Assembly: GCA_023313575.1 (NCBI GenBank)
Contig: JAJTTP010000005.1
Span: 124,001-188,000, forward strand
Reading direction: 5' to 3'
DNA: 64,000 bases
DNA from: Eutypella sp. D-1
Taxonomy: Eukaryota; Ascomycota; Sordariomycetes; Xylariales; Diatrypaceae
In this document: piece after piece, positions 9,459-56,859 of the stretch
Layout: every line of letters begins with the position of its first letter
How positions within the stretch are numbered: position 1 is the first letter of the stretch
Notes under the pieces: generated by a model
Database searches by the model: none
Told to the model about the DNA's origin: nothing
Seen by the model: only the letters and a program-made list of their open reading frames with translations
Translations under genes and position numbers: made by a program

Positions 9459-10939
9459 ATGTATAGTTTCAGGAGCCCCGTGGCTTCAAAGAAAGAACTA
9501 TGCCAATTCTACTGCGGCAAGGATGTCTCCCAGGTTCCTAAGCCGGCCGTTGTGTTAGATGTTGCGAAAGCTCGACGCCATTGCGCATCGATGCTTCGGG
9601 CTGTGAAGACCTTAGGTGTCGACTTCCGGGCTCATGTCAAAACCCACAAGGTCAGTGATGACTATGTTTTACATCTATGTTGATTTCCTTACTAGGATAA
9701 AAGCTACAGGACTGAGTAAATACTTACACCTATTTTTCGATATAGACAGTGGAATTGGCTCTCCTGCAAGTTGGGCAAGAATCCAAGGAGGTCAAAATCG
9801 TAGTATCAACAATTGCCGAGATTGAGCATTTGTGCTCTACTCTTTGCGACCTGAAAAGTAGGGGCTTATCCATCGATGTGTTATATGGGGTGCCCCTCCC
9901 TCCATCACAGGTCCGTCGACTTGCAGAACTCAGCCGTTTATTGGGATCAGGCACCATCACCTTACTCCTGGATCACCCCTCACAACTTGATGCCGTGGAG
10001 CAGCTCCATCACCTAGCACAGTCTCCATGCCCTGTTTTCCTCAAGATTGATACCGGATATCACCGGGCCGGACTCCCACCCAATGCTCTCAACAAGGCGG
10101 GCTTGCTCGACAGAGTGGCGCAGCTAGAAGCAAATGGGGTCGTCACATTCAAAGGCCTTTACTCGCATACCAGTTTAAGCTATGCCGGAACGACTCCCGC
10201 ACAAGCTATGGATTTTCTGGCCTCCGAAATCAATGGCTGTGTGCACGCCTTCGAGCAGAATCGCCAGTATCTGTCCAGAAATCCTGAGCTTGTAATCAGC
10301 GTTGGTGCTTCGCCTCAGGTGACATCCATTCAGAATTTAGCAGACTCCCAGGATGCGGCGGATATTGAAGCTACCAAACTCAGGAAAGCTCTTCAAGACG
10401 TTTCGTCTCTGGCGTCTGCTGGTTTCCAAGCCAAGCTTGAACTCCACGCCGGTGTCTACTCGGTGATGGATATGCAGCAACTAGCGACTCAATCAAGACC
10501 GTCAATTGGGAAGGAGGAAGATGAAATAGCTATCTTCGTGATGGCCGAAGTCATCAGCGTATATAACAGTGGTGAGCGTCAGGTGCCCGAGGCGCTCCTT
10601 GCCGTCGGGACCTTAGGTCTTGGACGAGAGCCTTGCCCCTCGTACTCCGGATGGGCAACTGTCGGTTCTTTGCCCAATCCTTCTGAGAGCGCTTCCCAGC
10701 GCCGCTTGATAGTCAGTAGGATCAGCCAGGAACACTCGATTATCTCGTGGGAAACTACTACAGAAGACGCCGTCGCAGACCTGCCGGATATCCCCGTTCA
10801 GGTGGGTAAGTCGCTCCGCCTTTATCCGAACCACGCCTGCGTTACTGGTGCTATGTACGACTGGTTCCTTGTGGTCGATTCCACCGCAGCCAATCCGAAT
10901 GAGATTTCAGATGTTTGGGTTCGAGCGTCAGGATGGTGA
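9459..10939 (+). CDS. D-serine dehydratase-like PLP/zinc enzyme (alanine racemase-type fold)
   Basis: Two exons, 9459-9650 and 9746-10939, joined in phase 0 by a 95-nt intron (GTCAGT donor, TATAG acceptor); 461 aa. The N-terminal motif RAHVKTHK (about residues 57-64), split by the intron just before the following Thr, holds the Schiff-base lysine region of the fold-type III D-serine dehydratase/D-threonine aldolase family. FLKIDTGYHRAG is the next conserved strand. LYPNHAC near residues 423-429 supplies the His and Cys that bind catalytic zinc in eukaryotic D-serine dehydratase. Expected reaction: D-serine to pyruvate and ammonia, in the cytosol (no signal peptide). D-threonine aldolase-type activity is the main alternative. 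About 460 aa is somewhat longer than yeast Dsd1. Confidence 0.88.
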
Positions 10940-16922: not shown

Positions 16923-19184
16923 AGCCCTACTCTACTCGTACGCCACGCTACGGTTTGCCCTACCCTCCATACTGACCCCCATTTTATATCGCTTTCATTC
17001 ATCAACTTCATCCCTTGTCACATATTTCCTATGTCGAGTCCCGCGACCAGATCACGGGCAGGTGGTGCATATGGCTTTCTGGCATATCTTTTTCTAGTCT
17101 TTTCGCATTTGATTAAGGATACCCACGATCATGTGGTAGGAAGGTGTTTGTTGGTTCAGGTCTGGCAGCAGGTGTTTTTTTGCAGTTTCTATACACTCAT
17201 ATGACAGCAAGGTTGTGTGTCATGGCTCTTGGAGTCTTTGGACGTCTGCAGGGAATTTGATGATGATGCATTGAGGATTTGTCTCTTCGGCATAATTTCT
17301 TTTTTCTTTTTTTATCGGATTGGCGTTTGGACATTTTCTCTGGCTATTACGAGTAGATGGTTTTCCTTTACGTCGGTCCACAATGTTATGATACCCCATT
17401 TCGCTATTAGCATATTTGCTTTTTTCTTTTTCTTATTCTTTTTTCCTTTCTTCATCCTGTCCTCCGGGAATTGGCCCTGCATACTTGAGAAATATGGTCC
17501 TGATCACCAGGTTTCGCTGGATACGCTAGGAAGAGTGTTGTATTTAAGTGCACTGGCTACTGCGCGAGGAGGGGGCGCCACATCAAATTGTACATGTAGG
17601 AAACTTCTAGGCCCTATGCCTCACGAGCATTTTGCTCGGAAGAATCTTTGGCTCTGCGTCTGGCTCAGCTGGCATGGATTCGCATACGGTCTCGACAATG
17701 CTACCTTTTTTTGGTCAGTCTTCGACTGAAATACCCTGAAATCACCAGACAATCTTGAAAAAGTGCTAGTCACCGCGCCACATTGGATCAGAGTAGGTCG
17801 TATTAAGAATGAGCCCCGGACATCTCCTAGATCTATTCTTGAAGTCCAAGCCAATGCGGCCCATGCCTTGCATTCTCATTTCCGTTTACATCACCGTGCC
17901 TGCATCCCGGCCTCGTTATGTCGCAAAACCCAAAATATTTGCCTAGATATTGTAGATACCTAGACGTATTCATCATAGGTAGACTCATCGCTCCGTCTTG
18001 GTTCATCGGTAATATCGGAGCGAAGTGGGGAAATGGCGTTCGGGACGATCCGGCGCCGCCGAAGACCGAAGCGGATTGCCCTTGGGACCGACCAGCCAAT
18101 CAGACCGCCTCTTCCCGTCCAAAAACGGCATGTGCCTGTTTTTCTTTCGCCCGAGTGACAGCATCTACCCATCTGCACACGCACCCCCGTCTAATACCAC
18201 GCATGTGGATCCCGTTACAACCACCATACCCCGGAGCTAGGAGTTGTTTTTAAATCCGCTATATAGTTACTAGCCTCGAGACTACATACCGAGTTTAGGT
18301 AGCACCGTTGTTGCATCATTCGTTTACTGCCTGGCCGATCGATCGGTGGGCGCTGATGCTTACTCCTCTTGCCGATGAGACCGCGCAGGGACTCTCTCAT
18401 GTGTAAATCGCCCCCCCCCCCCCAAAGACAAAATCTCGGAGGAGAGGGGAAACCTCAAAGTTCTGACTCACCCGACTCGGTATCAGCTAGGCGAAGTCGA
18501 TATGTGAGTCACCCGGATCCACGTGGCTGTCTCAAGATTTTCCCGTGTCAGACTTTTGAAAGGCTAATTGTGATTGGCCATGAATTATTGGTAATCGAAA
18601 GGGTTATGTATATTATTGTTACTATTAGGGGGTTGTGAAGTCCTATCGGGACCCGGAGGGCGAAGTGTGGCTGAAATCCTCCAGTAGGCTTAACTATTAT
18701 GTAGATATCTACCTATCTAATCGGTGGTCGCATGACCCATCATCGAACTGCTGTGCGTGGTGCGGGTGAATGTAGGCAATGACCCACAATACCTCCAAGG
18801 TTATAGACGCGCCGTTTAGTTGCGTTGGCTATGTCCCAGTCCTACGACAACCTATAGCTTCGGGTGCTTCCACCCGCCATCTTCTAAACCCCAAGAGTCG
18901 GCCAGGACTGCTCCTGTCCACAGCCCTAGCCGCGTGGAGATGTCAACATGCCAAGGGAAATGCCCCCCTTAAACCCCCACGCATTAATGTATCCACTAAA
19001 GGAGAATCCCTCTTGGCTCCCCATCATTCGGGTATGGCCTTTTCCTGGTGGTGTAGTACACTGCGTCTATCTTTGTTGGATAGGCATCGGCGGCCGATTG
19101 GGAAGGAAGTTCATAAGAATTTCCGTTTTGGCTTAAGGCTTGTCGGAGGCCAGCCTTGGCTGTACCTGCAAGGCAGAAGGACAC
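16923..19184. other. Intergenic, no gene seen
   Basis: The first 500 bases are probably 3' UTR and downstream sequence of the zinc-finger gene: T-rich, with an accidental 170-codon frame at 17217-17729 full of Phe from T runs. The rest has no recognisable gene. A poly-C run lies near 18410. Confidence 0.55.
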
Positions 19185-20035
19185 TTTAACGGTAGCATCA
19201 AGGTACGGAATGCTCGCGTCGAGGATCTCCGTACGATGAAGGGAGGGAGCTCTGGTCCGGGAAATGCGGCCTGCAGTTCCCATCGGAGGGTGTGCTGGGC
19301 TTCTGTATAGGTACCCATGAACATGAGAAACCAAGAAGGCGAGATGGAAGTAGAATCGTAAGCCTAAGTATGCAACACAATGTTTAGACGCACTCGCGAA
19401 TCAAAGTTTATGTCGCCTAGCTATAAGGTTGGGTCACCCAGCGGCACACCCATCTTCTTAGCCGCAAAAAAGTCTTTGTCTCAAGACCAAGTCCATAGCA
19501 CATGCGTCGACATCATCCATGCCCTCCAAGGCATCGGCTCTAAGCTTTTCGAATCTGCTCACAGCGTTGCGCGTAGCTGCACTAATCTGAGTCTCAACCA
19601 TCCGTCTAAATCTGAGATGCCATAGTGTAAGCTTCTCCAGCTGTTTGCAGAAACCACGCAATAGTATCCGACATGTACTTCATGAAATGCATCACGAACT
19701 CCCCTCGGGGTTGCGAGGCTTCGTGAGCTTGCCTGGAATTGGCTTCCAGGAGTTTCTGGGTCCGATTCAATCAAGCCCGAGGATGCGCCCGTAACGACTG
19801 CCTAGACGGTATCGAGCGCCGTGTTGGTCATATCATCGTGGATATCAAACAGCTTATCCTTGTACGCGGTGGTCCCCTTCAACTTCCACAGCTCTATTGG
19901 AGCGACATACCTATTCCAGAGCCGGGGAAGTTTGGCCGGGCATGGGTGGTTCGGAAACTGGTGGTCGAACAAAGTGGAAATGTCGAACTTTATCATATTC
20001 AGTCGGATACGACAGAATGCGTTGGGTACTAATAG
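19185..20035 (-). pseudogene. Cytochrome P450 pseudogene (broken)
   Basis: On the minus strand, consecutive but frame-shifted pieces match the order of a fungal P450. First comes IELWKLKG and LFDIHDDMTNTALDTV, then an in-frame TAG where this family usually has Trp or similar before the A-x-x-x-G of the helix. It continues with GLIESDPETPGSQFQ, then LWHLRFRRMVETQI, CAMDLVLRQR, FAAKKMGV, LRWELQAAFPGPELPPF and EILDASIPYLDAT. At least one stop and several frameshifts separate them, and I find no I-helix AGxDTT or haem-Cys motif, so it cannot make a working enzyme. Family assignment rests on pattern memory; precise limits are uncertain. It lies beside other metabolic genes and relics. Confidence 0.6.
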
Positions 20036-20748
20036 TTCGCAGGGGTTGTCACAGCAAATTGGAATACAGAAGGCCTAGAGCCGCGGGGGGGTGACGCTGC
20101 GGTGCTGCTAATCCTGTGTTGGCCACGTGCTTCATTATTCAACGCATCTGACAACCTGAATCAGTGGCGCATACTGTGGCATGTCGCACGCAATATGCGA
20201 TAGTGATACAAATGATCTTGGCAAGTTTGCCTGGGAATATGTAGAACGGCCCTGCGCCGGAGGCTTTCAAGTATGACGATTTGTAAGCCTACCTAGACGG
20301 AAAGGTCTCCAGCGCGGCAGAATATATTGACCGAGGGCGGTTGGAATGTAACCAATTAGTAGATAATCCTACCAGACTGCCACAAGAAAGCATTTGGCGG
20401 AGGCTATCCCGGGACGCGAATGGCGAATCTATGTATGAAAGGGCCGTGCTGGGGAATCCTTCTGGCTTATTTACATCTAGCTAGCCAATGAACAAAGGCC
20501 TGACTCGGGACGCGAGCAACCTGCTTATGTGATTATCTCTCCGAACTATCCGTACGCCCAGTCTCCCATTCTTGATTTATTTACCGGGCTTTCTACTTGA
20601 ATATAGATATATGGAGTCTCAACTGCAGCAATAGCGTTGGTACTAGTTCTATTATTCTATTTCCCAAAGGTCGGCCGCCGTCTTCTCGCTATTTCACAGT
20701 ATATATCTGAATCTAACTTCGATCTAAGGCTTTATTGTGTAATCGACT
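20036..20748. other. Intergenic; may hide the 5' end of the P450 relic
   Basis: No open frame of interest. The N-terminal part of the minus-strand P450 should lie here but I could not recognise it, so it is either too decayed or lost. The right end should hold the promoter of the dehydrogenase. Confidence 0.45.
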
Positions 20749-21870
20749 ATGGGTCACCCACACATCCCCCCAACGCGAAAGGGAATCAACCTCACCGGCA
20801 AAACAGTCATAATAACTGGAGGGAATTCTGGACTGGGGCTGGAAGCTGCCAGACAGTTCCTTACACTAGGTGCATCTCGGGTGATTATAGCATGTCGATC
20901 CCAGTCCCGAGGCCAAGAGGCCGTGGCCGCACTACGGGCCGATCCAACTGTCCAGGAGGCCAACCCCAAAGCCGTAATTGAAGTGTTCGGGCTTGACCTT
21001 TCCGACTACCAATCTGGGTTGCGCTTTGCAGACAAGGTCAAGAAGGAGGTGAAGGAGCTCGACATACTTCTTAATAACGGGGGCCAGGTAGTAATGAAAT
21101 TCGAGAAAGCTAAAAGCGGGCATGAGAGGAACTTCCAAGGTATAAATTCCTAGCACGATATTAGCATTATTATTTTGAATACCAGGAAGTGCTGACCGAA
21201 GGAAGTAAATTGTTATACCCATTTACTCATCTGTCTCGAGCTGCTCCCTCTGCTCAAAGCCACGGCTGCTTTACGAGGGACCCCGACGCGAATCACATAT
21301 ACAGGGTCCGCCACACATATTAGCCAAAACACTCTTTCCAAGAAGCCCATTTTACCTACCGAGACAGTTTTGGGCCATTTCGACGATGAAGCGAACTTCA
21401 ACAAGTATTTTCGCTATGCCGACACGAAGCTTGCTGTAAATGCATATGTTCGGCGCTTAGCGATGCTCGCACCGTCTGAAGTTATCGTCAACAACGTGTG
21501 TCCCGGCCTTGTACACACTGGAGGCCTGGACAGGAACCTCCCCACAATCCTGCGACTTATCATGACTGCAGTCCGGAAGATTGTGGGGCGTTCCGTTGAG
21601 GAGGGTTCTCGGACTCTGATCTATGCTAGTGCTGTCGCGGGCACCGAGTCGAACGGCAAATTCCTGCAAAATAACAAAATTGATCCGTACGTGAAAACAG
21701 GTCGCGCCAGATCAAGCAATGGCATGCTAACTATCTTGAGTAGAGGTGCTGAGTTTCTCAATGGATCCGAAGGTCAAAAATTCATTGACAATCTATGGAA
21801 GGAGACTGTGGAAGATGTCGTTCAGGTAGACTCCACACTCTCCTGGGCGCTTTCTGGAACCCCGCCATGA
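20749..21870 (+). CDS. Short-chain dehydrogenase/reductase (SDR)
   Basis: Two exons, 20749-21139 and 21206-21870, joined at CAAG/GTATAA and GGAAG with a 66-nt intron; 351 aa. The classical Rossmann NAD(P) motif TGGNSGLG is at residues 23-30. The NNAG equivalent reads NNGG. The catalytic Ser is about 165 (TGSATH), with Tyr201 and Lys205 in YADTK. The order and length match the fungal retinol-dehydrogenase-like/WW-oxidoreductase-like SDRs common in secondary-metabolite clusters. No signal peptide. It oxidises or reduces an unknown carbonyl/alcohol substrate. Neighbours are a P450 pseudogene upstream and an acyltransferase pseudogene and P450 fragment downstream, so this may be an intact remnant of a broken pathway. 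Confidence 0.9.
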
Positions 21871-22189
21871 TCCACTAGCAGGCATGTTCCTGTCTCATCC
21901 CCACGACCTCTCGACCGTTCTCGGCCGAGAGACGATTGCGTGAGAAGCGGGAACGCCAACTCCGGCACAATGCTGGCTGTATGCTGCCTTAGAACTGAAG
22001 TCAGTATGCATATTAGTTATAAGGCTATGGCAAGGGTTCGCGATACTCACTGAGGAGGGTACACGGCCATTCGGATGCCGTAACGAAGGGAATGTGTGTA
22101 TGATCAGCTCCCCAGGTGCGTTGGTGGTTTATCAAGGTTAGAAAAAGCTAAGAGCCACTTACCCTCCGTAGCATAGAATGCCAAAACTT

Positions 22190-22765
22190 TTTGCGTACCT
22201 GTCAGTCATCGTGTCCGTAATGATCAAAGGATTGGGGCACCATAACCCTGACAACGTCGCAATGGATAAGACTCGCTGATATCGTCAAGCATGGCCGGCC
22301 AGAGTTTCAGATCCCGCCAACTACCCAAGAGTTCTCCAGGAACGCCACATGTCCGTAGACAACCGTGAGCCATCCAACAGTGATGAATAGCCGAAGAAAC
22401 AGGGGATGTCGTATGAGCCAGCCTTTCTATGCCGGCGCTCCTACATCATACTCCGCGAGAATCGCCGAAGCGAAAACGGATACCAAGTGAATTAATAAAA
22501 AAGCGATAAACGACTTGAACAGCCAGTTCTAAGGAAAACGCCATCTCTTGGCAAAACCAAGTGTTGGTACGCCGGGGGCCATCCAGTTCCAGCCGGCCCC
22601 TCTCTGAGAACTGATCATCTGCGCGCCCCACCAGAATTTGCGCCAGATACCGTAGGTCTCCGGGCCATGACCGGGCTTGCCATCAGTGTCTGCGAAGATA
22701 CTCATTTTCCGGATGTGCATGTACATGCGGTCGATAATTCTTGCATTTGGCCCTGCGATCAACAG
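22190..22765 (-). pseudogene. Wax-synthase-like membrane acyltransferase pseudogene
   Basis: On the minus strand a continuous frame contains the pattern of fungal wax-synthase-domain (MBOAT_2-like, TRI7-type) acyltransferases: ISSQRGAGWNW followed by APGVP, preceded by a PETYGIWRKFWWG stretch. After WRFP the frame meets a TAG, then hydrophobic transmembrane-like sequence (FIAFLLIHLVSVFASAILAE), a second TAG before KGW, another membrane segment, and a TGA. The next family segment, WRDLKLWPAML, continues in a shifted frame and then meets more stops. At least three stops and one frameshift make it non-functional. TAG in place of CAG or TGG would fit C-to-T type mutation, but this was not measured. 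Confidence 0.6.
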
Positions 22766-23192
22766 TCTGGCATAATATCGATCAGTCTGGGGTGCATCTC
22801 GTGGTAATGGAGTAAGTAAGGTATAGAGTATTAGGTAGAATTACAAGGGCTAGCAAGCTCTCCGGGCGATCGAAGACCGTAGCAAGAGAATAAGGTGTGT
22901 TGCAAGATAGGCGAGGGGGATGTACTTGGGAGCGAGAAGCCCTGTTGACGAGGCATGCTCTCGAAATTATCGGTTGAATTCTCGGAAATTTCCATTTGGC
23001 TACCGTGTTCTTGACTATTGGTTATAGGATGTGGATTCCGAGTTTGGTTCTATAATTGCACTGTTTCTAGGATTTTCAAAAAAGCCACTGATGGCAGCAA
23101 GCTGGGGCTGTGGTCCCTGGGGCTTTCGGCGGACATTAGAGGGTACCTACGGGGGCTGACGGCGACTCGTCCGGATGCAGCACCGTCAGCAT

Positions 23193-23683
23193 GTCTATTC
23201 GACATACCAGGACAACGCCTCCCGCTTTTCCGATCGTTAGGACTATAACTCAGAGCCTGCCACTTTGGCTGGCAAGGATGGCATCAAGAACCGTTGCTCG
23301 GGGCCTAGAGCTGGAGACGGTGAGTTGCCTCTGTCATTGATATCGATTCAATCAGGAAAAAAATCACTTAAAACATTAGACATGTAAATTCGATCTAGCT
23401 GTTTCGAAGTCGGGTCGATACGCCTGTGGCTGCGCACGAAGGCAGATCCAAGCCGGATTTTCCTACGCTCATGGAGCGAAAGCTCACGGCCAGCCCGAAG
23501 AACGTTTCGGGCCTACAGTGGTCCCGTGAGTACCTTCGCGACGAGGCTATCCTAATGACATCCGCGGGCACTGATACCACAGGGATAACCACTATGGTTG
23601 ACCTCTTCAACTGTCCAATAGTAATGGTGCATGCCATTATCACGATAGAAAATCTTGACGCGATGGCGAGTGGTGGCCGATAA
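23193..23683 (+). pseudogene. Second cytochrome P450 fragment (truncated)
   Basis: The plus strand reads PPAFPIVRTITQSLPLWLAR, then MASRTVARGLELET, which is the typical F-to-G helix region of fungal P450s. An intron-like gap follows (GTGAGT donor near 23320, CTAG acceptor near 23398). Next come HEGRSKPDFPTLMERKL and, near 23555-23580, the I-helix oxygen-binding motif AGTDTT preceded by LRDEAILMTS. After that the frame loses family resemblance and ends at 23683. No ExxR, PERF or haem-Cys segment is found downstream, nor an N-terminal anchor upstream, so only the middle third survives. Confidence 0.6.
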
Positions 23684-25232
23684 GTGCGCATCGCCCAGCC
23701 TAATGCATTCATCGATGTTTTGGGTCTGCGTAATATGGGTACAGCTGGTCTTCCACGCAGCCACGTCAAGCGCGACCCGGGAGCTTGGGTCGGAAGCTAT
23801 TGCGGCGTGGCGTAACGCGCCATGACCTCGGCCGTGAACACCGACCCGCCGATCCCATCGACCGGCCTTGCAACGGCCATGCGAGCACACTATTCATTAT
23901 CACCTGTCAAGTCTCCGGGAGATGAATTGACGTTGTTGGGTGATTGTGGGCGAAACTCGAGGTTTTCCTTTCCCGCCCAGACTAGGAAACAACCATATGT
24001 CGTACCCAACAACTCCGAGTACCGAATCCTAGGCGTAAAGGAAATGAGTTCAAGCGCACAGCCTACTAACTATTGTATAACGACACGCTCAGTGGATTAT
24101 ATATGGGCTCATATAAGAGTTACATTGCACAAGTCAAAGATACGACACTACTACAGTAGTTATAACTAAGTATGTAAGTAATCACTGCAAGCGCGGGAAG
24201 ATTCAGGATTTCTGCATCAACTAGCGCACAGAGCCATACCTAAAATAAACCACAGGATATGATAAAGGAACGCCCTACGCCTCGTTGGGCAAGACTTGGC
24301 CGGGCCCAGGATTCACGGACGGATTCCATGCGCCCATATAACTCCGTAATACGCGTGCGGTGATTGGTTCTGCGGCGGGCGCAATGCCGAAAGAGCTCCA
24401 CGGCGCATGGCTCGTGTCCGGGAGACTAATGTTAGACGCAACCGTACAATTTTGGGGGGAGCAATTTCGTAATTGGGCGGCGGCCCGTGTTCCTAGCTCG
24501 ATATAGAAGGAGGGTCCTTATAAGGATTAGCGGGTTCGATGATATTCATGCTCAAAGGATTCTCTTGTTATAGCATTGGGCTTCTTCCTGGCTATTATGT
24601 ATAGGTTTCTCACGATATGTTGGTGGCCGACTCCTCGCCTACAGCCAACGAGAGGCACAGCCGAGGTATAAAAATAAAGATGATCAAGGAAGGAAGGGAC
24701 TAAAAGGCTGTTCAAGAAATGGATGGCTTGCATCACACATTTTCTTATTGGCTTGGGCATCCGATATAACCATGTCTGCCATGTTTACAGGGGATCTAGC
24801 CCCGGCCACGTTGGACAATGTCCAGCATTCGAACTTGCCCCCCTGGCCCCCAATCCTTCTCAATGCGACCTTAACCGTGATGGGTATGCATTGTGCCGTC
24901 GCAAAAAGGCGCCAGCTAGATGCCCAGGAACCCACTAGCCAACACAGTTAGGTATAGCTGCGCGGGATGGGTATGGGGAAGCGTTTCGGCATCCACGAGA
25001 TGATGCTGGGGGTCTGACTCCGTGGTCTACAAATGGAGCAGTACATATAGGCGATATGTTCCGACCGAGACATTCGGTTTACGAGTTTCCCCCTCTTCGT
25101 ACTTAACCAAGCTATTCATCGATCTTCGCTTCTATTTCCTCGCACCAAGTGGGCACGTACCCCGGGTAATACATCCTGCTTTCCATCTTCTCCCACGTCT
25201 CACGGCCGGTAAATCTCGAGGTGAAACCCAAG
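23684..25232. other. Intergenic, no gene seen
   Basis: Overlapping short frames on both strands around 24684-24951 show no domain. The missing 3' half of the P450 fragment was looked for here and not found. Confidence 0.5.
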
Positions 25233-26080
25233 ATGCAGATCTCCGTAATATTTCTGTCGCTCGTCGCGACCGGGTCCGCGATGCCCCAGTTTCTGGCAGC
25301 CGCAGCCCGCTCCGTCCAGCCCTGGGTCGCGCCTGGCCCCTCCGACTCCCGTAGTCCCTGCCCGATGCTCAACACGCTGGCGAACCACGGCTACTTGTGA
25401 GTTAATCCATCCATCTACATTCTAATCCAGACCAAAAAGACAGAGTAAACTGACCGCGTCGCGATGAGAAAAAAAGGCCACACAGCGGGAAGAACCTGAC
25501 GGTGCAGGACATAGCAGAGGCATGCCAGACGGCGCTGAACTTCGACGTGGGGTTCGGGCTGCAGCTGGGTGCGGCGGCGTTCCAGCTGCTGGGGGGCAAG
25601 GAGACGATCGACCTGGAGGACCTGAACACGGCAGGCGCGACAGAGCACCGGGCATCGCTGACTCGGGACGACGCCGGCGAGGGTCGCGACAGCCTACACC
25701 TGAACCCGGACCGTCTGCGCGCTATGCTCGACGACAGCGACGACCCGGACTACCTGACCGTGGCGTCGCTGGCGAAGACGAGAGTCCGCGTCCAGGCGGC
25801 CTCGGGTCCGCCGCCCCTCGAGGGTACCGGCCTCACCATGGCCCTCGGCGAGTCCGGCCTGCTACTGCTCTCCATGGCGGAGGGTCCCGTATCCGACCCC
25901 GTCGACATCGCCGCCCTTCGCGCCCCGAAGAACCGCGTCTCCGCTTGGTTACTTACTGAGGAGCTCCCCGTCGAGTTTGGCTGGCAGCCGGCCTCGCGCG
26001 CGCTGACTATCGCCGACGTCGCGACCCTGAGCCGGGCCGTCGTCGCCGCGGAGATAGAAATTGCTGGATTGATAAGTTGA
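25233..26080 (+). CDS. Chloroperoxidase-like haem-thiolate peroxidase
   Basis: Two exons, 25233-25396 and 25486-26080, joined in phase 2 by an 89-nt intron; 252 aa. A short N-terminal hydrophobic segment (ISVIFLSLVATGSA) is a probable signal peptide, implying secretion. SPCPMLNTLANHGYF (Cys43) is the proximal haem-thiolate PCP motif of the chloroperoxidase/peroxygenase family (Peroxidase_2). GKNLTVQDI, LEDLNTAGATEH, LNPDRL, DYLTVASLAKTR and ALGESGLLL follow in family order; Glu177 in GESG fits the distal catalytic Glu. The usual Glu-His-Asp reads Glu-His-Arg (108-110). Likely reaction: H2O2-dependent halogenation or oxygenation of organic substrates. It is very GC-rich compared with the DNA to its left. 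It sits at the end of a run of metabolic gene relics and may have belonged to the same pathway. Confidence 0.87.
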
Positions 26081-33553: not shown

Positions 33554-36546
33554 GATGGGCGGCGTCTGTTCGGGCGAGGGAGGGTCGGGTTATGAGTAGT
33601 GGTGCTAGAACAGAACGGATGCAGGAACGGGTGCTGGATGATATAACTATGGTCTCTCAATCACTAACTAACTGCGGGAGGGTCACAGCAGTCTTAAGTG
33701 TAGACGACCAAAGGTTGCATTCCCACCGCACAGACGTATGTTTGGGGGGGGGGGATTTGGGGGTGGTGGTTTGGGGGTGGTTTGGGCGTTTGTGCGTTTG
33801 GGCGCAGTCGAGAGATGAAATCAAGGAGAGAAGAATCCCTAATCCCAATGAATGATCCTGGTGGTGGTGGTAAGCAAATAGGATACCGACCCGGTTTGCC
33901 TTATAATCGAGATCCAGAGAGATCCAGTGGCAAAAGGGCCCCTTTAACGTTGTTGTCCTGCTTTGCCTGCATGCAACTACAAAAAAGACAAAACCGCGTC
34001 GTGGGTGGGGGGTGAGACCTGGAAAATCTGACGACCTGAAGATCTGATGAAGACCTGGAGAGACCTGGGAGACCTTGAATGTGAGACCTTGCAGCGTTGC
34101 TGCTGTGGCACACTAACCTAAGCTCCCAAGAAAAAGGAACCTTGAAAAGGTTCGTTTGTTATCACGAGAAAGCGGTACCAACAAAACCAAGGTGGAGATC
34201 GTTCGTTCTAGGCTTACAAGTCGAGTTCTGTAAGGAGAGAATGTTGTGACTCGCGAGTTTGTGCGAGAGGAGGATTGGGGGAGATGAAGGGAGTTGGGAA
34301 TTAAAGGTAAGTATGGAAAGGTGAGGTAGTAGAGATAGTAGAGGTAGTAGTAAGTATTCCAGGTTGGAAGTGGGTGATGGTGGTGGTAGTAAATGGGGTG
34401 AATGAATGGATGGGGATGGATAATGGATGGAGGAGATGGGCCGGTACAGTCTAGCTTTAGATGTACTGGTACCACTCTGTTACTTATTTACGTACGCTTC
34501 AGAGGTACACAATTATGTAGCGAGAAGTATCTAAGGTAGCCATGTTTGACGACGGGCCTCGGGGGGGTTATGGTGGGACGACAAGCCTAACTAGAGCCCT
34601 CTATGTACTGAGCTTCAAGTACCTAAGTAGTAAGCCTGACAGGACAGGAGGCTCAGTTCCTGGATGATTTAATTTGTATGTGCAGCTGAGTTACTTAGGT
34701 ATTCTTTGTTTATCTAGCCAGGATAGTTATTTACTTAGGTAGTTGATTGCATTCTTGGAAACACCAAGTAGTCCTTTATTATAGCGGTACTCAGATATGT
34801 CCATATAGGCTTGGTAGGTAGGACTTAGGCAGTGGATGCTGCAGACAGTCTTTCAGGTATCAATCAGTAGCTCCCAAATATACCTAAATGCTTAGTGGTC
34901 CCCACTACCAGTACCTTCCGGCCTCGCAGTATGCAGGTAAGTATATTGAGAGAAGAACGAGATTATTGATACAACTGCCTTCTCTTTTCTTTCTTGCCAG
35001 TCGAGCAGAAAGTTTAATTGCCGAGGATTCGAGACTGACGACAAGAGGAATAACCTCAAAGGACACGGGGATCGACTTCGAATGTCAGGGTGAATGTGGG
35101 GCTTCGAAGTGAGGTTATATAACCCAGGGTAAAAGGCACAAACACAGACAAAGCAGTTGGTAGTAAGAAAGGGGCCAGAGGGTGATAACGGAGGTCTATT
35201 GTAACGAGGTAGGATTCAAAATCCAATAGTACCTACATAGGCATATGTAGCAGAGTAGCAGTGCTGGAAGTAGTACCTAAGTATGATGTAGTAGGAGGAG
35301 GTATGGAGCAGGTAAAGGCGACCTGCAGTAGCTAAATCATCATCCCATCATATAACAATGTACGTGCAGCCTCCTGATACTCCTCCTAGACATATGCATG
35401 TGTACATAGAATCATCACGTAACTGCTAAGATATAGATAATAATCACACGGAACGGCGGCCTAGGCCGGCCACTACTTAATATGGCCGACTCTACTCCTC
35501 CGTACATTTAGGTACGCATAGCATAGCAATATTCCGGTCCACTCGCTTGAGCACGAAAATGGCGTTAGCGAATAACAATACAACAAGGGCGAACGAAAAG
35601 ACGCATAGTCAACAACTTCTAACGTGGTTTCGGCATGAACATTGTTTGGAAAGTGGACAACATCTGAGACGTTTCTATTCTCACAATTCGTAGAAGCGTT
35701 TAAAGCTGTGATATGACTGGATGCCTGTCAACCAGTTAGCTTCCCCCCCTGACTCCTTTTTTCCTTCAATTTTGACCTTGCACCATTCTAAGCGTTCCCG
35801 CTAATGACAGAGCGGGGAGGGCAACCCTTTTATGAGCTAAACCCTCTGTAAAAAAACATAGATGTGCCAAAAAGGGGTAAGATCTTCCTCATACACAGTT
35901 AGACGTTCCAGCTCTACTATACCCATAACTGTATCATCCTCCCCTAATCCGATCTATGTGTGAGCTTGCGCTATGGTAAACTTTTGTTTGGTGCTGAGGA
36001 ATTGGTCATTGACATGTTCTTTCGATGTTGGTGGACCGGAATGTGGCACTCCAAACCCGGGGGTTGGTCCATAAAAGACAATACACACTAGAACGCTCTC
36101 TCTACTTTACTTGAATACCTAGGTAGAGAGTATCTTGAGCGGCTTGACGTGTATCGAGTAGCTGGGAAATACTACACATATTTTCGCAATGCTTGAAGGT
36201 ATGGTGATATCTTAAAGCTGAAGGCGATGCTTTAGTGGGTGCTGCTCTGAGAAAAGCTATACCTATGGTAGTCATGCCCGCGCGAAGACTACTATGTACT
36301 GCGACCGAACTTCCACATTCTCGTTCCTACGTATTGCACATCGTATATATGTCGTTTATCGTATGTATCAAAAGCGCGAACAAGTAAAACAGGACGATAT
36401 GAACTGAGATTAATGCCTTAGAAGGGCTGGTTTATCATGTCCAATAGGATGATCTATGAAAAGTGACTGTTTTTTTTTTGGTCTACATCTCTAAGCTGTT
36501 CAGTGGTTTATGGCCTTACTTCTCGATCTCCTTACCTGCCTACATT

Positions 36547-36572
<26 letters not shown>
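36547..36572. repeat. (TA)n microsatellite
   Basis: Thirteen TA units in an uninterrupted row. Confidence 0.9.
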
Positions 36573-36577
<5 letters not shown>

Positions 36578-36989
36578 TGCCCAGGTGTACCTACTTCGGT
36601 AGGTAGGTAGGCAAGGGTATATGTATGTAGATAAGGAGCAAGTGCCCCGCACTATCACCCGGAACGGAAGCCCCACCTTGATCCCGATCTCCGAGAAAGA
36701 CCTATCGAAAAGCCCGGGACTGAATCCTGGTTCAGCCACAACATTTTTCAATATGTGGCTGGTTGTTTGCTGCACGGGTTGAAGCAAGTGGCTTTGCCCA
36801 GCAAACGAAACGCGACGGGACCTACCTATTCTGCCTTTAGAGCTCTTTTTTTACCTTATCTTAGGTACTTACTTCTATCTACCCTACCCGTGCGCTGCCT
36901 ACATACCGCGGACCTGTCTATACTTAAGGTTAAGGTTATTTACTGCGTGTTTGTAGTGGTTGAGAGATAACTTTGAAGAATACGTACAA

Positions 36990-37062
36990 ACGCCGCCTCT
37001 TCTTTCCCTCCCTCTCTCTCTCTTCTCGCTTTCTTTCCTCTCTTTTTTTTTTCTTCCATCTA
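36990..37062 (+). promoter_or_regulatory. Pyrimidine-rich promoter tract of SPT6
   Basis: Long CT/T-rich tract (CTCTCTCTC, then T10) about 260-330 nt upstream of the SPT6 ATG. Such tracts often precede transcription starts in filamentous fungi. Confidence 0.4.
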
Positions 37063-41802: not shown

Positions 41803-44223
41803 GACCCCAGGGGGGGGGGGGCACAAGATGTATGGGACTTGGGACTTGGTTCGAGCGCGTGAGGTGGAATGTCTTGTCTAACTATCTAGAGAGTGGTACA
41901 TTGCTTATTGACCTCACTGCATATCTCCCCCTTTTTCCCGAGGACATTGGGGGCTGTTCCTTAGCAGGCACTACCGTATCTGAGAGCTCAGGCCCAACTA
42001 GTTCGAGTGCCTAGGTAGACACGGTGTGGCTGATGGTCCGGCCGTCTCCCTTACCATGTCCATACCTCTATCGGTTGGATTGGGTTGGGCAGTCCAACGT
42101 AATTTGCAGTTTGTGGTTACAAATAGAGACCGGGAGTGCCTAGGTATGGCTGTCGCGAAGCAAAGCAAAAAAGGAAGAGAGGCTGATTTTTTTTTTCTTT
42201 GCTTGCGTACGTAGTATCATGAATGAATATAACGGTGATCAACCTGTCTCGACGTATCTATCGTATCATCATATCTGGCTCTTAGAAAGTCAACCCGTTC
42301 CCCTCACGCCCCCTTTTCTTTCTAGAAGGGTCTCTCCCTCCTGCTCTTATGTACTAGTTAGTTAAGCTTACTTCCGTGCGCGAGCAACTATTGAATTGGT
42401 GTTCGGGCCCGGGCTTTTTCTTTCGTGTGTATGTATGTATCCAAGGGTTAGGTCTACATACATAGCATGCAAACTTGCGGTGACGTATGGGGTAGATAGA
42501 TGGATGGATGGGGGTATGGGAAAAAACCCCTGTCCCCCACGCACGCCGATGCCGACCCCAAAAGAAGCACAGAATCCTTTGTATGTAGGCAACAGGAAGA
42601 CTAGGGGGTGTAATTGTTGAGGAATATACGGGTTTTTGCTTCTACATAATGCAAAGCGAGCTGCCTCATTTGGGGATTTCCTGTCTCTCGTCTCTCTCGT
42701 AAACGCTTAGAAGAGCATGTGGCGGGTGCTTAGAATAACGTGAATATCTGGTGGAAGTTGGATGCACCTAGGTACCTAGGTAAGTGGGTACAAGCTAGCT
42801 AGCCCTAGTGCTTGCAGGTACCAAGTGGTATAGTGTGGCAGTTGTGGTTAGGCTAACAACTCCCAAGCCCCGTGCTATCTGGCCGTCTGGCTGCCTGTAG
42901 TAGTAGCAGTACCCAGCTTTTTGCCAGCCACGCCAACCCCCTCGTAAATCGTATTTAGCATAGTTATACTTATAGCTGTACAATGGCTGATTGGATAGAA
43001 AAGGAGGACATGGAAGTGCTGTAACTTCCTATGCAGGTAGGAATAGCCCGTTCAGGGTCAGCCTAATAAGAGGCTGAGGTTGTGTCCACCTCTTATAGCT
43101 GCCTAGCTGCAAGCGTTCAGGGATCGAGTAAGTACTGCCACGCTGTGAGACGGGCTGCAGAGGTACTGATGGGGGTACATACACTTCAGATTGCCAAGCC
43201 CGCGATTCAACCAGGGTTGCTTAGTCGAATTTATTGCCGGCGGCCGATCAAGAGATAATAGTGAAGTTTAGTACCTTACCTAAACCAGCCCCTCCCGCCA
43301 GCCCCCACCATCTCATCACTTTTTTTGACACATGTACAAGTGTATAAGGCAAGATGGATTGGCCTGATGGGTGCTGTCTTGACGGTGTGTAGCTGCCTAC
43401 TTAGGTACATTTATTTGTACGTAGGTATTGTCGAGGTTGCACCGCCAATTTATGAAGAAAAAAGAGAGGTCTCATCTCAACCTTACTTACATGGACAGAC
43501 GCGTTTAACCTACTTCCTTCCTTTTTTTTGTTTCCCGCCTTTCAACGGGGTATTGTGTATGACCGGAACAGACACATCAAAAAAAGCTTCACTTACTTCT
43601 TATATACTTTGGGGGGAGGATCTATCTTAACTGCTTAGTAAAAAAGGCAGAACCAGATTTATAAAAAGCTAGAAACTTCCAAACCAAAGCCCGAAGCCCT
43701 AAATTAAAAGAAAAGAAAAGAAAGGGAAAAAAGTCCCCCAGAAGCTCGTTCGGCCCCCATCCGGCGATCGCGGAACCACGAGAAAGTCAAAAGACCCCGA
43801 ACCCGTGACCTCCGTCTACTCCGTCGATCCCGTACTTTGATTTGGTTCCTATTTGAGGGAAGGGGGGGAGGTCCTTCCCGAGGTCTTTTGGTTCGCCCTC
43901 TACTTCTAATTACTTTGCCGTACCAGCCGGGCCGGCCTATAAGCTAATTGTTAGATAAAAACTTAATTCGCCTTTTACCGTCATTTTTATAGCCCGATTT
44001 CCCCTTGCTTACCTCACTTCGCTCGCTACCTAGGTACTATCACCGAGATCTCGAACCTGCCACGAGCCTTTTATTTTATTTCATTTTATTCCTCCTACTT
44101 GCTTATAGCAGACACACCAAACACTAAACGCAACACGACACGACACAACTAAACTGGACATAAAACGATAGAGAGAACGAGAAGACATTCCCCATTGCCA
44201 GAACCCTCAGGGGAACGTCAAAG
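41803..44223. other. 2.4 kb intergenic region
   Basis: No gene seen between SPT6 and OSH3. It includes the perfect palindrome at 42766-42781, purine-rich blocks near 43700, and the leader of OSH3, with another CTACCTAGGTA near 44028. Confidence 0.55.
42766..42781. repeat. Perfect 16-bp palindrome
   Basis: ACCTAGGTACCTAGGT is its own reverse complement. It is one of the TACCTAGGTA-family elements found across the window. Confidence 0.85.
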
Positions 44224-47200
44224 ATGGCGGGAATAGAGCAGTTAGAGATTCACAGCAAGGTAAGTTATAAACAGACTGGGTGATAGAGTACATCCCATCT
44301 TCCTCAGACATCACCAGATTTGTTGGAATGAGAATAGAATCAGAATAGCTGCTTACGTGTCTGTCTACTCGTTCCAATAAAAATAGTCGTATATCATGCG
44401 ATGGGTAAAGGTCGACGAAGGCCATACCATATCATGGAGTGTCCAGCCTCACAAGAAGTCCATGTAAGTTGAATTATTACTCCTACTCCTATTTCGTTAC
44501 TTCCATTCACTTTCCTCGCTTTCCTTGCTTCCCTGTTTTCTGTATATCACGTCTAATTTTGCCCCCAATCTAGTAACTTTGGCATTGTCAAGCATCCTGG
44601 CTCCGGCTCAAGCAGCTCCGGCGCCGATGACCTCCCCTCCTCCACCTTCGACCACGGTGACAGCAATAGTACCCATAATACGAAAAGTAGCCGATTCGCC
44701 CGAAGAGACGCGAGCACTGCACAGGATCAGCTGAGTGCCAAGGGCTTCATACATATAAAATGGATCGGGAAGTGTGAGGCAGATAAGGTGTCTATGGGCA
44801 CTTTCGACGTGACTGCGGGACACGGCGGCATGTTCGGCTTGGTATTCGACAATACCTTTTCCAAACAAACCTCAAAGACCGCCACCTTCGTTCTCCTTAC
44901 TTATCCGACCGGTGCGCCTCCCCAGGGCGCCCATCACCTACCTAACCTCGGTGGACCTCGTGGGAATGCGAGCAGGACGAGCTTGGGGAAGTTGAATCAG
45001 CCGGTGCCCGGCACCGATTCGACCGAAAGCCTCCATGGCCACGAAACAGAGTCTAAGAGTCGTGCCTTATCCACGGCTGGTCATAGTGACGTCGGGTCGA
45101 CCGGCACCACGCACCACACGGGGAATTTGCTCAAGAGGAGGAGGAAGAAGGGGCAGGGATATGCGAACCGATTCTTCTCCCTCGATTACACTACGTGCAC
45201 ACTTTCTTACTATCACAACCGGAAAACCTCTGCGTTGCGGGGCGCTATACCTCTCAGCCTGGCTGCCATCTCCGCGGATGAGCGAAGGAGGGAGATTAGC
45301 ATCGACTCGGGCGCCGAAGTCTGGCATCTGAAGGCACACAACGCGGAGGAGTTCGGTGACTGGGCTAAGGCTTTGGAGAAAGCTAGTAGGATTGCAAGGG
45401 GTCTCGAGGGAGGAGGAAAGCAGTCCTCTTCTCCCAGGCTTACCATTACTGCTTCCGGTCTCACCCCGCCAAATACGCAGGAGGAAGACCGCGAGTGGCA
45501 TGAGGTTGAAAGCCTGGTCAGCCGTGTCGTTGGTACGAGGGATGCTCTGCGTCGCCTAGTCAAGGACATGGCGACACATGGTCCAAGTCAGGGTCAAGGC
45601 CAACGGCCTCCGAGCTCTCACCTTACCCCGAATGAGACGCCAGGTTCGCCCGAGGAGAAGGACGGCTATTTCCCTACCGGACAGGGGGGGGATAGGCGGT
45701 CCTTTTGGAAACGAAAACAGGGCTCCTCTCCAGCTGCCACCGGTGCTGTTGCTGGTGCTGCCGCGGGGCCCGCCCTAGCTGTTCCTAGCCCGGCCTCAGC
45801 CGCGACAGTCACGCCCAACGGGGCTCCGGCGGCACAGGACGAGCGGGCCACATATGAGCACTGCAACGCGCTCTTGACAGACCTGGATTCTGTCGTAGCC
45901 GAATTCACAAATCTCATCTCCAACAGCAAGCGGCGTCGTATTCCTCCCAGCTCAGCGAAATCGGCGACCGCTCGGTTGAGTCTAGAATCTACCGCTTCCA
46001 CGGATGAATTCTTCGACGCCGAAGGTGGGGAGGTGGAAGACACACCGCAGGTCATGATGATTGAGCGGCGGGAGAACGAGGAGGATTCCCAGGAATCAGA
46101 AGACGCAGACGAGGCATCCATCCACGATTCGTCGTCCGCCTCGTCTGTCGCTGAAGAGGAGGATACTTCCAGCGGCCCCGTTACTCTCTTCCCGGCCAGA
46201 CCTAAATCTTTGAATCCCTTACCTGTTGACATCGCGGTAGAGCGTCGTACTACTATACCCCCAGCGACGTGTGCTCCGCCGAGCCTGATCGCATTTGTGC
46301 GCAAAAACGTGGGCAAGGATCTCAGCACCATTAGCATACACGTCTCGGCCAACGAGCCGACCTCCCTGCTCCAACGTTCGGCCGAGCAGCTCGAATACGC
46401 GCAGCTCCTAAACCAGGCAGCGCAGCAGAAGACGCCGAACGAGCGTCTGCTCTACGTGACAGCGTTCGCCATCTCGCAGTACAGCGTCAACCGTGTGAAC
46501 GAGCGGGCGATCAGGAAGCCATTCAACCCGCTGCTGGGCGAGACGTTCGAGCTCCTGCGCACGGAGAGCGAGGTGCCGGGCGGGTTCAGGCTCATCGCGG
46601 AGAAGGTGACGCACCGGCCGGTGCGGCTCGCCATGCACGCGGACTCGGCGCTCTGGTCCTTCACGCAGAGCCCGGCGCCATCGCAGAAGTTCTGGGGCAA
46701 GAGCGCGGAGCTGGCAACGGAGGGGCGCGTCCGCATCGCGCTGCGCCTGCCCGACGGCACCGACGAGCACTACTCATGGAACCTCGCCAACATGATCCTC
46801 CACAACGTGGTCATGGGCGAGAAGTACGTGGACCCGACGGGCTCGATGACGGTGGCGAACGAGACGACGGGCGCGCGCGCCAACATCGAGTTCGTCAAGC
46901 CCAAGGGCATGTGGGGCGGGCGCGGCGAGGAGGTGTCCGTGACGATCGCCGGCCCCAACGGCGCGCAAACCGGCCTCGGCCTGCAGGGGACGTGGAACCA
47001 GTCGCTGCGGACGCTGGGCAGCGGGAAGGGAGGGGCGGGCGGCACGGAGATCTGGCACGCCGGGGACCTGGTGCCGAACCCGGCGACGACGTACGGGATG
47101 ACGCGGTTCGCGGCGACGCTGAACGAGATCACGGAGGTGGAGAAGAATCGGCTGCCGCCGACGGACTGCCGGCTGCGCCCGGACCAGCGGCTCTACGAGG

Positions 47201-56300: not shown

Positions 56301-56859
56301 GCGCAGGCATCTCAAAATGGCCACCCGGCTTTCGGTCGAGACCGCCAACCAATAGATTAGCTGACTGGATCGCGATGTATGGTAACCATCGGAGGAGGAG
56401 GATGTATGGTAACCTCCCATAGCCCCGTCATATCTTTCACTATGCAACCAGTTGTCACGAGCTACCGATATTTAATACCATCCCATCACTGTATAACGGA
56501 CTTCCGAGGTTTTTAGTCTGAGCACAGCCGTTTTTTAAGGCATAGAACCCAGCTCGCTGTACCTTGCAGCCTGGGGTTCATGCCAAACACGAGTTAAATG
56601 GAGGCAGCACATTCTCCACGTAGGTTTAAAGTTACAAATATCCGATTTGGGTGCTAAAGGTACTTCCCCAATCCCTGCGTGGGAGCCTCGTTCGATGTTT
56701 AGCCGTCATAGCTATAAACCCTGCAGTATCCCGCACTCGCATGGCCTTTAAAGTTACCATATTATTCCTATTCTATCATCTTATGCATCGTCACATCTTC
56801 GTTGAATACATAGTGGAAAGCTCATACATATATATTCAAGGTGTCTTGTCGGGGGCAAA
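53301..56859. other. 3.6 kb gene-poor stretch
   Basis: Many short frames on both strands, all broken, none with a recognised domain. I looked for reverse transcriptase and transposase patterns on both strands and did not find one I can defend. TACCTAGG-type elements occur near 53700-53900 and 55690-55750. The last 300 bases should hold the multicopper oxidase promoter. Confidence 0.5.

What the first reader, a model, noticed from the sequence alone, without database searches (positions are those of the whole stretch)
19185..26080. Probable dead secondary-metabolite cluster
Within 7 kb there are pieces of two different P450s, a wax-synthase-like acyltransferase and an intact SDR, ending with an intact chloroperoxidase-like gene. 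Tailoring enzymes of this kind cluster in fungal natural-product loci. Three of five are broken while two keep full frames and active sites, suggesting recent or selective pathway loss. No backbone enzyme (PKS, NRPS, terpene synthase) is visible here, so it may have been deleted or lie elsewhere.
Basis: partly seen in the sequence, partly recalled or inferred. Interest (0 to 1): 0.75.

Follow-up and report, generated by a model that had tools for sequence, protein, structure and literature searches.

The report
Dead tailoring genes around live reductase
In a fungal genome, a long-dead P450 gene and a long-dead acyltransferase gene flank a still intact reductase gene, with an apparently unrelated intact peroxidase gene next door; it looks like an ordinary leftover of a lost pathway, not a newly dying one.

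Summary
The sequence claims hold in the main. A P450 relic lies on the minus strand (strong pieces 19134-19936, weak in-order pieces from 18892 to 20661). Its pieces, scored apart, chain to 190 bits against intact paralogue L106; 300 shuffles reach at most 58.7. A wax-synthase-like acyltransferase relic (minus, 22254-22661) chains to 56.4 bits against own locus L017; 500 shuffles reach at most 43.0. The second P450 rests on one I-helix motif (23522-23590) and is unproven. The SDR is intact: 332 aa, two introns, 65 of 68 family-invariant columns kept. The chloroperoxidase-like gene is intact.

The five-gene cluster reading is only partly supported. The peroxidase's closest named relatives are in Monosporascus and Diatrype; it looks like an independent secreted peroxygenase. 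The SDR is a widespread fungal family with an ordinary branch length. Both relics look too decayed for a recent loss. No ketosynthase, condensation or terpene synthase match lies near; the nearest is a non-reducing PKS about 40 kb away beyond housekeeping genes. Synteny in relatives could not be tested. This is an ordinary gene-cluster remnant of modest interest.

The parts
19134..19936 (-). P450 relic A, strong pieces: collinear with intact own-genome paralogues L105 and L106; strong pieces in two frames, a weaker one in the third, one in-frame stop
   Evidence: (whole chains 190.1 and 185.5 bits; 300-shuffle maxima 58.7 and 53.3)
19937..20661 (-). possible N-terminal part of P450 relic A; faint, pieces of 12-15 bits each
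   Evidence: weak pieces in the chains, not significant alone
18892..19133 (-). possible C-terminal part of P450 relic A with the heme-loop position; pieces of 11-21 bits each
   Evidence: weak pieces in the chains, not significant alone
20749..21870 (+). intact SDR gene, 332 aa, exons 20749-21139, 21206-21686, 21744-21870
21140..21205 (+). SDR intron 1, 66 nt, GT..AG
21687..21743 (+). SDR intron 2, 57 nt, GTACGT..GCTAAC..TAG; in frame and without a stop in that frame, so it looks like coding
   Evidence: (insert absent from 17 of 17 homologues)
22254..22661 (-). wax-synthase-like acyltransferase relic: separate pieces collinear with L017, including the RGxGWxW stretch; one frame holds 1 TGA and 2 TAG
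   Evidence: 56.4 bits; 500-shuffle maximum 43.0; same locus, E 0.415; stops
23522..23590 (+). P450 I-helix-like stretch, possible relic B; unproven
   Evidence: (24.5 bits; 1 of 500 shuffles reach it; chain 91 of 500)
25233..26080 (+). intact chloroperoxidase/short-UPO-like gene with signal-peptide-like N-terminus (by eye); intron 25397-25476 (80 nt); probably not part of the relic locus

Best explanation
The stretch 18.9 to 22.7 kb is the old remnant of a small accessory tailoring locus. A P450 and a wax-synthase-like acyltransferase, both on the minus strand, have long been pseudogenes. The SDR between them is alive and kept for its own NAD(P)-dependent reductase function, whether or not it once served the same pathway. 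The peroxidase at 25.2 kb is an independent secreted heme-thiolate peroxygenase. Shown: the two relics, the two intact genes, substantial decay, no RIP signature, no KS, condensation or terpene synthase match nearby. Inferred: that the P450 and the acyltransferase once worked in one pathway, that the backbone enzyme is gone, and what the SDR and the peroxidase do now.
For: Relic A: one search finds two intact paralogues (E 1.4e-5 and 3.0e-5); their second exons hit Pfam p450; the chain of separate pieces reaches 190 bits against a shuffle maximum of 58.7. Acyltransferase relic: with weak agreement. SDR intact and constrained: (end branch 0.15, equal to the median). Peroxidase's named relatives closest in Monosporascus and Diatrype; active-site EHR shared with them. 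DNA of 19100-20700 and of 22100-25200 finds only itself in the genome. No RIP: index -0.34 to -0.65 in the relic segments. With 114 P450 match rows and 261 candidates in 48.5 Mb, a P450 within 4 kb either side of a given gene is expected in roughly 2-4% of cases (my arithmetic), so the pairing is unlikely to be chance.
Against: No relative with an intact block could be examined, so co-function is inferred from adjacency alone. The two in-genome P450 paralogues (on C20 and C12) lie on contigs with none of the 9 wax-synthase matches. P450 B is unproven. The name of the acyltransferase relic rests on L017, whose own PF13813 match is just under the cut-off (22.8 against 25 bits), and the genome search with the relic gave only E 0.415. 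Only three backbone families were searched.
Confidence: 0.55

Rival explanations
1. Independent pseudogenes: the P450 and the acyltransferase died separately in a gene-poor stretch and never shared a pathway.
For: P450s are many in this genome (114 match rows; 92 of 261 candidates scored); own paralogues of the two relics are on different contigs; no KS, condensation or terpene synthase match nearby.
Against: Chance closeness of a P450 to a given gene is about 2-4% (my arithmetic); both relics lie on the same strand 2-3 kb apart and both are much decayed.
Confidence: 0.28
2. One reading: a five-gene secondary-metabolite cluster, SDR and peroxidase included, recently or selectively lost.
For: All five kinds occur as tailoring enzymes in fungal clusters (recalled); some peroxidase hits carry an stcC-like name (P0147, P0148 and P0179); four of the five genes are real.
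Against: Decay is substantial, not recent. SDR and peroxidase homologues lie on contigs of different length in 7 of 7 species compared, certain for 2. Five Monosporascus/Diatrype rows hold the peroxidase, but none is among the 120 SDR rows listed out of 269.
Confidence: 0.1
3. The relics belonged to the non-reducing PKS locus now just beyond the window end, split off by rearrangement.
For: A synthase with SAT, KS, AT, PS-DH-like, ACP and TE matches lies at C45:189.3-194.9 kb, with a laccase-like gene at window 56806-58682.
Against: About 40 kb and housekeeping genes (Spt6, oxysterol-binding protein, DUF92, kinase) lie between. Such a PKS with a laccase is usual for pigment pathways, which need no wax-synthase-like acyltransferase (recalled).
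Confidence: 0.04

Closest known systems
Degenerate fungal biosynthetic clusters, e.g. partial zearalenone and trichothecene loci in the Fusarium incarnatum-equiseti complex (PMC6480918, passages seen)
   Same: Pathway genes left as pseudogenes or fragments, some beside intact genes.
   Different: There the intact cluster is known in sister species and its product is known; here neither could be examined.
Fungal P450 family of own paralogues L105 and L106 (C20:448.8 kb, C12:941 kb)
   Same: Relic A pieces are collinear with both over most of their length.
   Different: The relic is broken by frame changes and a stop; the piece at the heme-loop position (18946-18978, weak) does not keep the ligand cysteine.
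Fungal wax-synthase-like MBOAT acyltransferases (own L017, C15:40 kb; L014, C72:579 kb)
   Same: RGxGWxW stretch and WPxxLD stretch in the order of L017; L014, over the PF13813 cut-off, has a similar RGxGF stretch upstream of its family match.
   Different: Pseudogene. Neither the relic pieces nor L017's 319-aa first piece reaches a Pfam model; L017 was found through a PF13813 match in a neighbouring open frame, just under the cut-off.
Short unspecific peroxygenases / stcC-like peroxidases (PF01328; Marasmius rotula UPO 7zbp, E 8.1e-30)
   Same: PCP heme-ligand motif, conserved His and Glu, 255 aa.
   Different: EHR instead of the usual EHD, shared by its closest relatives.

Membership tests
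Fungal biosynthetic gene cluster (BGC) | Backbone enzyme gene (PKS, NRPS, terpene synthase) in the block | tested here: not met
   No PF00109, PF00668 or PF19086 match on C45 near 143-150 kb; nearest KS at 189.8 kb. Decayed backbones and other backbone classes could be missed.
Fungal biosynthetic gene cluster (BGC) | Several adjacent tailoring genes | tested here: inconclusive
   One P450 relic, one acyltransferase relic and an SDR confirmed; the second P450 unproven.
Fungal biosynthetic gene cluster (BGC) | Block conserved or co-regulated in relatives | not testable with these tools
   No fungal relatives or expression data held. Indirect: SDR and peroxidase homologues on contigs of different length in 7 of 7 species compared; same strain certain for 2.
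Cytochrome P450 (relic A) | Collinear P450 regions over most of the protein | tested here: met
   190.1 bits to L106 and 185.5 to L105, 0 of 300 shuffles reach either.
Cytochrome P450 (relic A) | Heme-ligand cysteine | tested here: inconclusive
   the piece 18946-18978 lacks it, but the piece is weak alone (15.5 bits) and occurs only in the L105 chain.
Cytochrome P450 (relic B) | More than one P450 region in order | tested here: not met
   chain reached by 91 of 500 shuffles; not above 12 shuffles with 74 references.
Wax-synthase-like MBOAT acyltransferase (relic) | Collinear match to an intact locus of the family | tested here: met
   56.4 bits to L017, 0 of 500 shuffles reach it; nine other window stretches give at most 28.1. 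L017's own family match is sub-threshold.
Wax-synthase-like MBOAT acyltransferase (relic) | Match to the Pfam model | tested here: not met
   no family for the relic pieces.
Short-chain dehydrogenase/reductase | TGxxxGxG cofactor motif and YxxxK | tested here: met
   TGGNSGLG and YADTK in the translation; T23, G24, G28, G30, Y201 and K205 invariant in 18 of 18 rows; Pfam adh_short.
Heme-thiolate peroxidase (PF01328) | PCP cysteine motif, conserved His and Glu | tested here: met
   PCP in the query and in the other rows except P0121 and P0122, which lack or differ in the N-terminus; H112 and E180 invariant in 16 of 16 rows. E180 aligns with Glu157 of M. rotula UPO by my count in the alignment (catalytic role recalled).

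The most novel reading that the evidence does not exclude
The SDR is the last living enzyme of a dead pathway, retained because it took on a new role, for instance reducing a shared or toxic carbonyl metabolite, making this a natural example of exaptation out of a decayed cluster.
Probability: 0.12. Interest if true: 0.4.

Novelty: new member of a known kind. Interest (0 to 1): 0.22.

Why it matters
Cluster decay is one way fungal chemistry diverges between species. This locus is a remnant with intact in-genome relatives for both dead genes, so its pathway could be traced in sister species. It also shows that a reading based on neighbouring tailoring-type genes can sweep in intact neighbours with other histories: the peroxidase, and possibly the SDR.

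Tried and rejected
Pfam on six frames of the relic region, X at stops: only the SDR seen; on single pieces: p450 at E 0.1 for one piece. Large protein search with one frame of relic A: 260 candidates, none at E up to 10. PDB search of two pieces: no P450. First BLAST panel without low-complexity filter was swamped by wrong-frame matches and dropped; a cleaner panel gave 29.3 bits for the relic A I-helix against 27.7 at most in 30 shuffles. A first chain scoring with too low a link cost gave meaningless chains and was replaced. RIP as the killer of the relics: rejected, indices negative. A repeated or multi-copy element: the two relic stretches find only themselves. NNGG and VNCYTH in the SDR looked like decay but are family-conserved; EHR in the peroxidase likewise is shared by its closest relatives. 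Transfer of the SDR from Trichoderma (its closest named hits, 64-72%): the query groups with a metagenome protein (SH-aLRT 96) and then with Grosmannia, Emericellopsis and one unnamed row (92), beside Trichoderma in a set of 22 (97), so no clear case. Paper search for wax synthase with P450, gene cluster, SDR and terpene terms: 0 papers. Paper searches were seen as listings only, apart from PMC6480918 and PMC11376284, of which I saw passages.

Full report
The window lies at C45:124001-188000 of a 48.5 Mb genome in 72 contigs; its genes are fungal. The peroxidase's closest named relatives are Monosporascus and Diatrype (57-60% identity), which I recall as Diatrypaceae, Xylariales; two unnamed metagenome entries are closer (98% and 88%).

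P450 relic A. Pfam barely sees it (E 0.1 for one piece), and a large protein search with one frame gave nothing. A search of the own genome with one frame, X at the stop, found two other loci at E 1.4e-5 and 3.0e-5 (L105, L106). Their second exons hit Pfam p450 at about 1e-20; their first exons hit no family. Scoring separate frame pieces and summing collinear ones gave 190.1 bits to L106 and 185.5 to L105; 300 dinucleotide shuffles each reached at most 58.7 and 53.3. The strong pieces run in order on the minus strand from 19936 down to 19134; weaker ones continue the order to 18892 and back to 20661. The strong pieces lie in two frames, a weaker one in the third. Two of the frame changes (between 19805 and 19652, and between 19244 and 19229) fall where the paralogues have one open exon, so they are not introns, and one frame holds a TAG. 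The piece at the heme loop (18946-18978) lacks the ligand cysteine but is weak alone. An earlier test with a profile of 27 own P450s agreed: chain 46.1, 0 of 500 shuffles; nine other window stretches gave at most 35.1. Identity to the paralogues in five pieces is 77 of 171 (L106) and 73 of 171 (L105), while L105 and L106 share 51% and 59% in their two exons. The relic is therefore well decayed, not freshly broken.

Acyltransferase relic. A chain against the 319-aa first piece of own locus L017 gives 56.4 bits on the minus strand; 500 shuffles reach at most 43.0, and nine other window stretches at most 28.1. The main pieces are 22535-22630 (36.0 bits, RGxGWxW region) and 22254-22301 (18.0 bits). 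One further piece in that chain (22722-22781) does not fit in distance, and I leave it out of the parts. L017 was found with PF13813 (MBOAT_2) through a match in a neighbouring open frame that is just under the cut-off (22.8 against 25 bits). L014, which is over the cut-off, carries a similar RGxGF stretch upstream of its family match. A genome search with one frame of the relic picks the L017 locus as the only other match, weakly (E 0.415), and that frame holds 1 TGA and 2 TAG.

P450 B. One stretch, 23522-23590 plus, resembles a P450 I-helix (24.5 bits; 1 of 500 shuffles reaches it), but the chain is reached by 91 of 500 shuffles. With 74 own P450 references the best chain is 39.6, and 12 shuffles give 35.9-44.8. 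Pfam and PDB searches of the piece give no P450, and a genome search finds only itself. It stays unproven.

SDR. Exons 20749-21139, 21206-21686 and 21744-21870 give 332 aa without a stop. The second intron is in frame and was seen because 17 of 17 aligned homologues lack it (17 taken of 120 listed of 269 found). Of 68 columns invariant in those 17, the query keeps 65. In a tree of 70 rows (query and 69 of the 120 listed) its end branch is 0.15, equal to the median. The listed hits come from Sordariomycetes, Leotiomycetes, Eurotiomycetes and others (names; classes recalled), so the family is widespread. In its own genome the next match to its exon-2 stretch by score is 33% identical. Relic A shows at least three lesions in about 0.8 kb; at that rate an SDR decaying for as long would stay free of lesions over 996 coding bases in only about 2-3% of cases (my estimate).

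Peroxidase. 255 aa, one intron, Peroxidase_2, best PDB match Marasmius rotula UPO (7zbp, E 8.1e-30). His 112 and Glu 180 are invariant in 16 of 16 rows (15 of 108 hits plus the query). The EHR motif is shared with Monosporascus and Diatrype. Nine species are named in both the SDR and the peroxidase lists. I compared the seven whose entries are single-contig and not from evidently different strains (T. arundinaceum, T. viride, T. ceciliae, T. chlorosporum, T. compactum, T. barbatum, Apodospora peruviana): the contigs differ in length in 7 of 7. T. harzianum and T. atroviride were dropped because their entries come from different strains. Locus tags prove the same strain for only two of the seven (TARUN, ACHAQJ); for the other five different assemblies could also explain it. 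The peroxidase homologues there are distant (31-46%), so orthology is not shown. Five Monosporascus/Diatrype rows occur in the peroxidase list and none in the 120 listed SDR rows; 149 SDR rows were not listed.

Surroundings. Ketosynthase, condensation and terpene synthase searches of the genome show no match near the block. The nearest is a PKS with SAT (C-terminal end only), KS, AT, PS-DH-like, ACP and TE matches at C45:189.3-194.9 kb, a non-reducing type by my reading, beyond Spt6, oxysterol-binding protein, DUF92 and kinase genes. The relic stretches are single copy, and RIP indices are negative there.

Reading. Two long-dead tailoring-type genes around a living SDR fit an old remnant of a small accessory locus. 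The peroxidase is best left out. Precedent for pseudogene remnants of fungal clusters is in PMC6480918 (passages seen). A review of Diatrypaceae metabolites (PMC11376284, abstract start and passages seen) says that 254 natural products are known from the family; the 12 passages shown describe no such locus.

Noticed in passing
L103 (G000:C45:188900-194900), just right of the window; laccase-like gene at window 56806-58682: The open frame of a non-reducing-type PKS (SAT end, KS, AT, PS-DH-like, ACP, TE) starts about 1.3 kb beyond the window end, with a multicopper oxidase 5-7 kb inside it; looks like a live pigment-type locus.
   Followed up: partly
G000:C67:1048129-1050773: A wax-synthase match lies about 2 kb from a terpene synthase match, a possible live terpenoid locus with an acyltransferase.
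   Followed up: no
L105 and L106, first exons: First exons of two intact P450s (374 and 377 aa) give no Pfam match at E up to 0.01 although the second exons hit p450; counts of P450s by Pfam exon can miss parts of this family.
   Followed up: partly
L002 (C34:2850805) and L003 (C19:313229): Two almost equal P450 matches of 471 aa on different contigs, also with a similar flanking frame: a recent duplication or an assembly duplicate.
   Followed up: no
window 34001-37000 and 42001-44500, among others: Stretches with RIP-like dinucleotide indices (TA/AT about 1.1-1.4, composite index about 0.1-0.46) between housekeeping genes.
   Followed up: no
window 9746-10936: Open frame with D-serine dehydratase-like and alanine-racemase-N matches upstream of the block.
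   Followed up: no
window 20749-21870 (SDR): The SDR's closest named hits are Trichoderma although the peroxidase points to Diatrypaceae; an unnamed JGI protein is nearer (79% over 248 columns). Patchy distribution, not resolved.
   Followed up: partly
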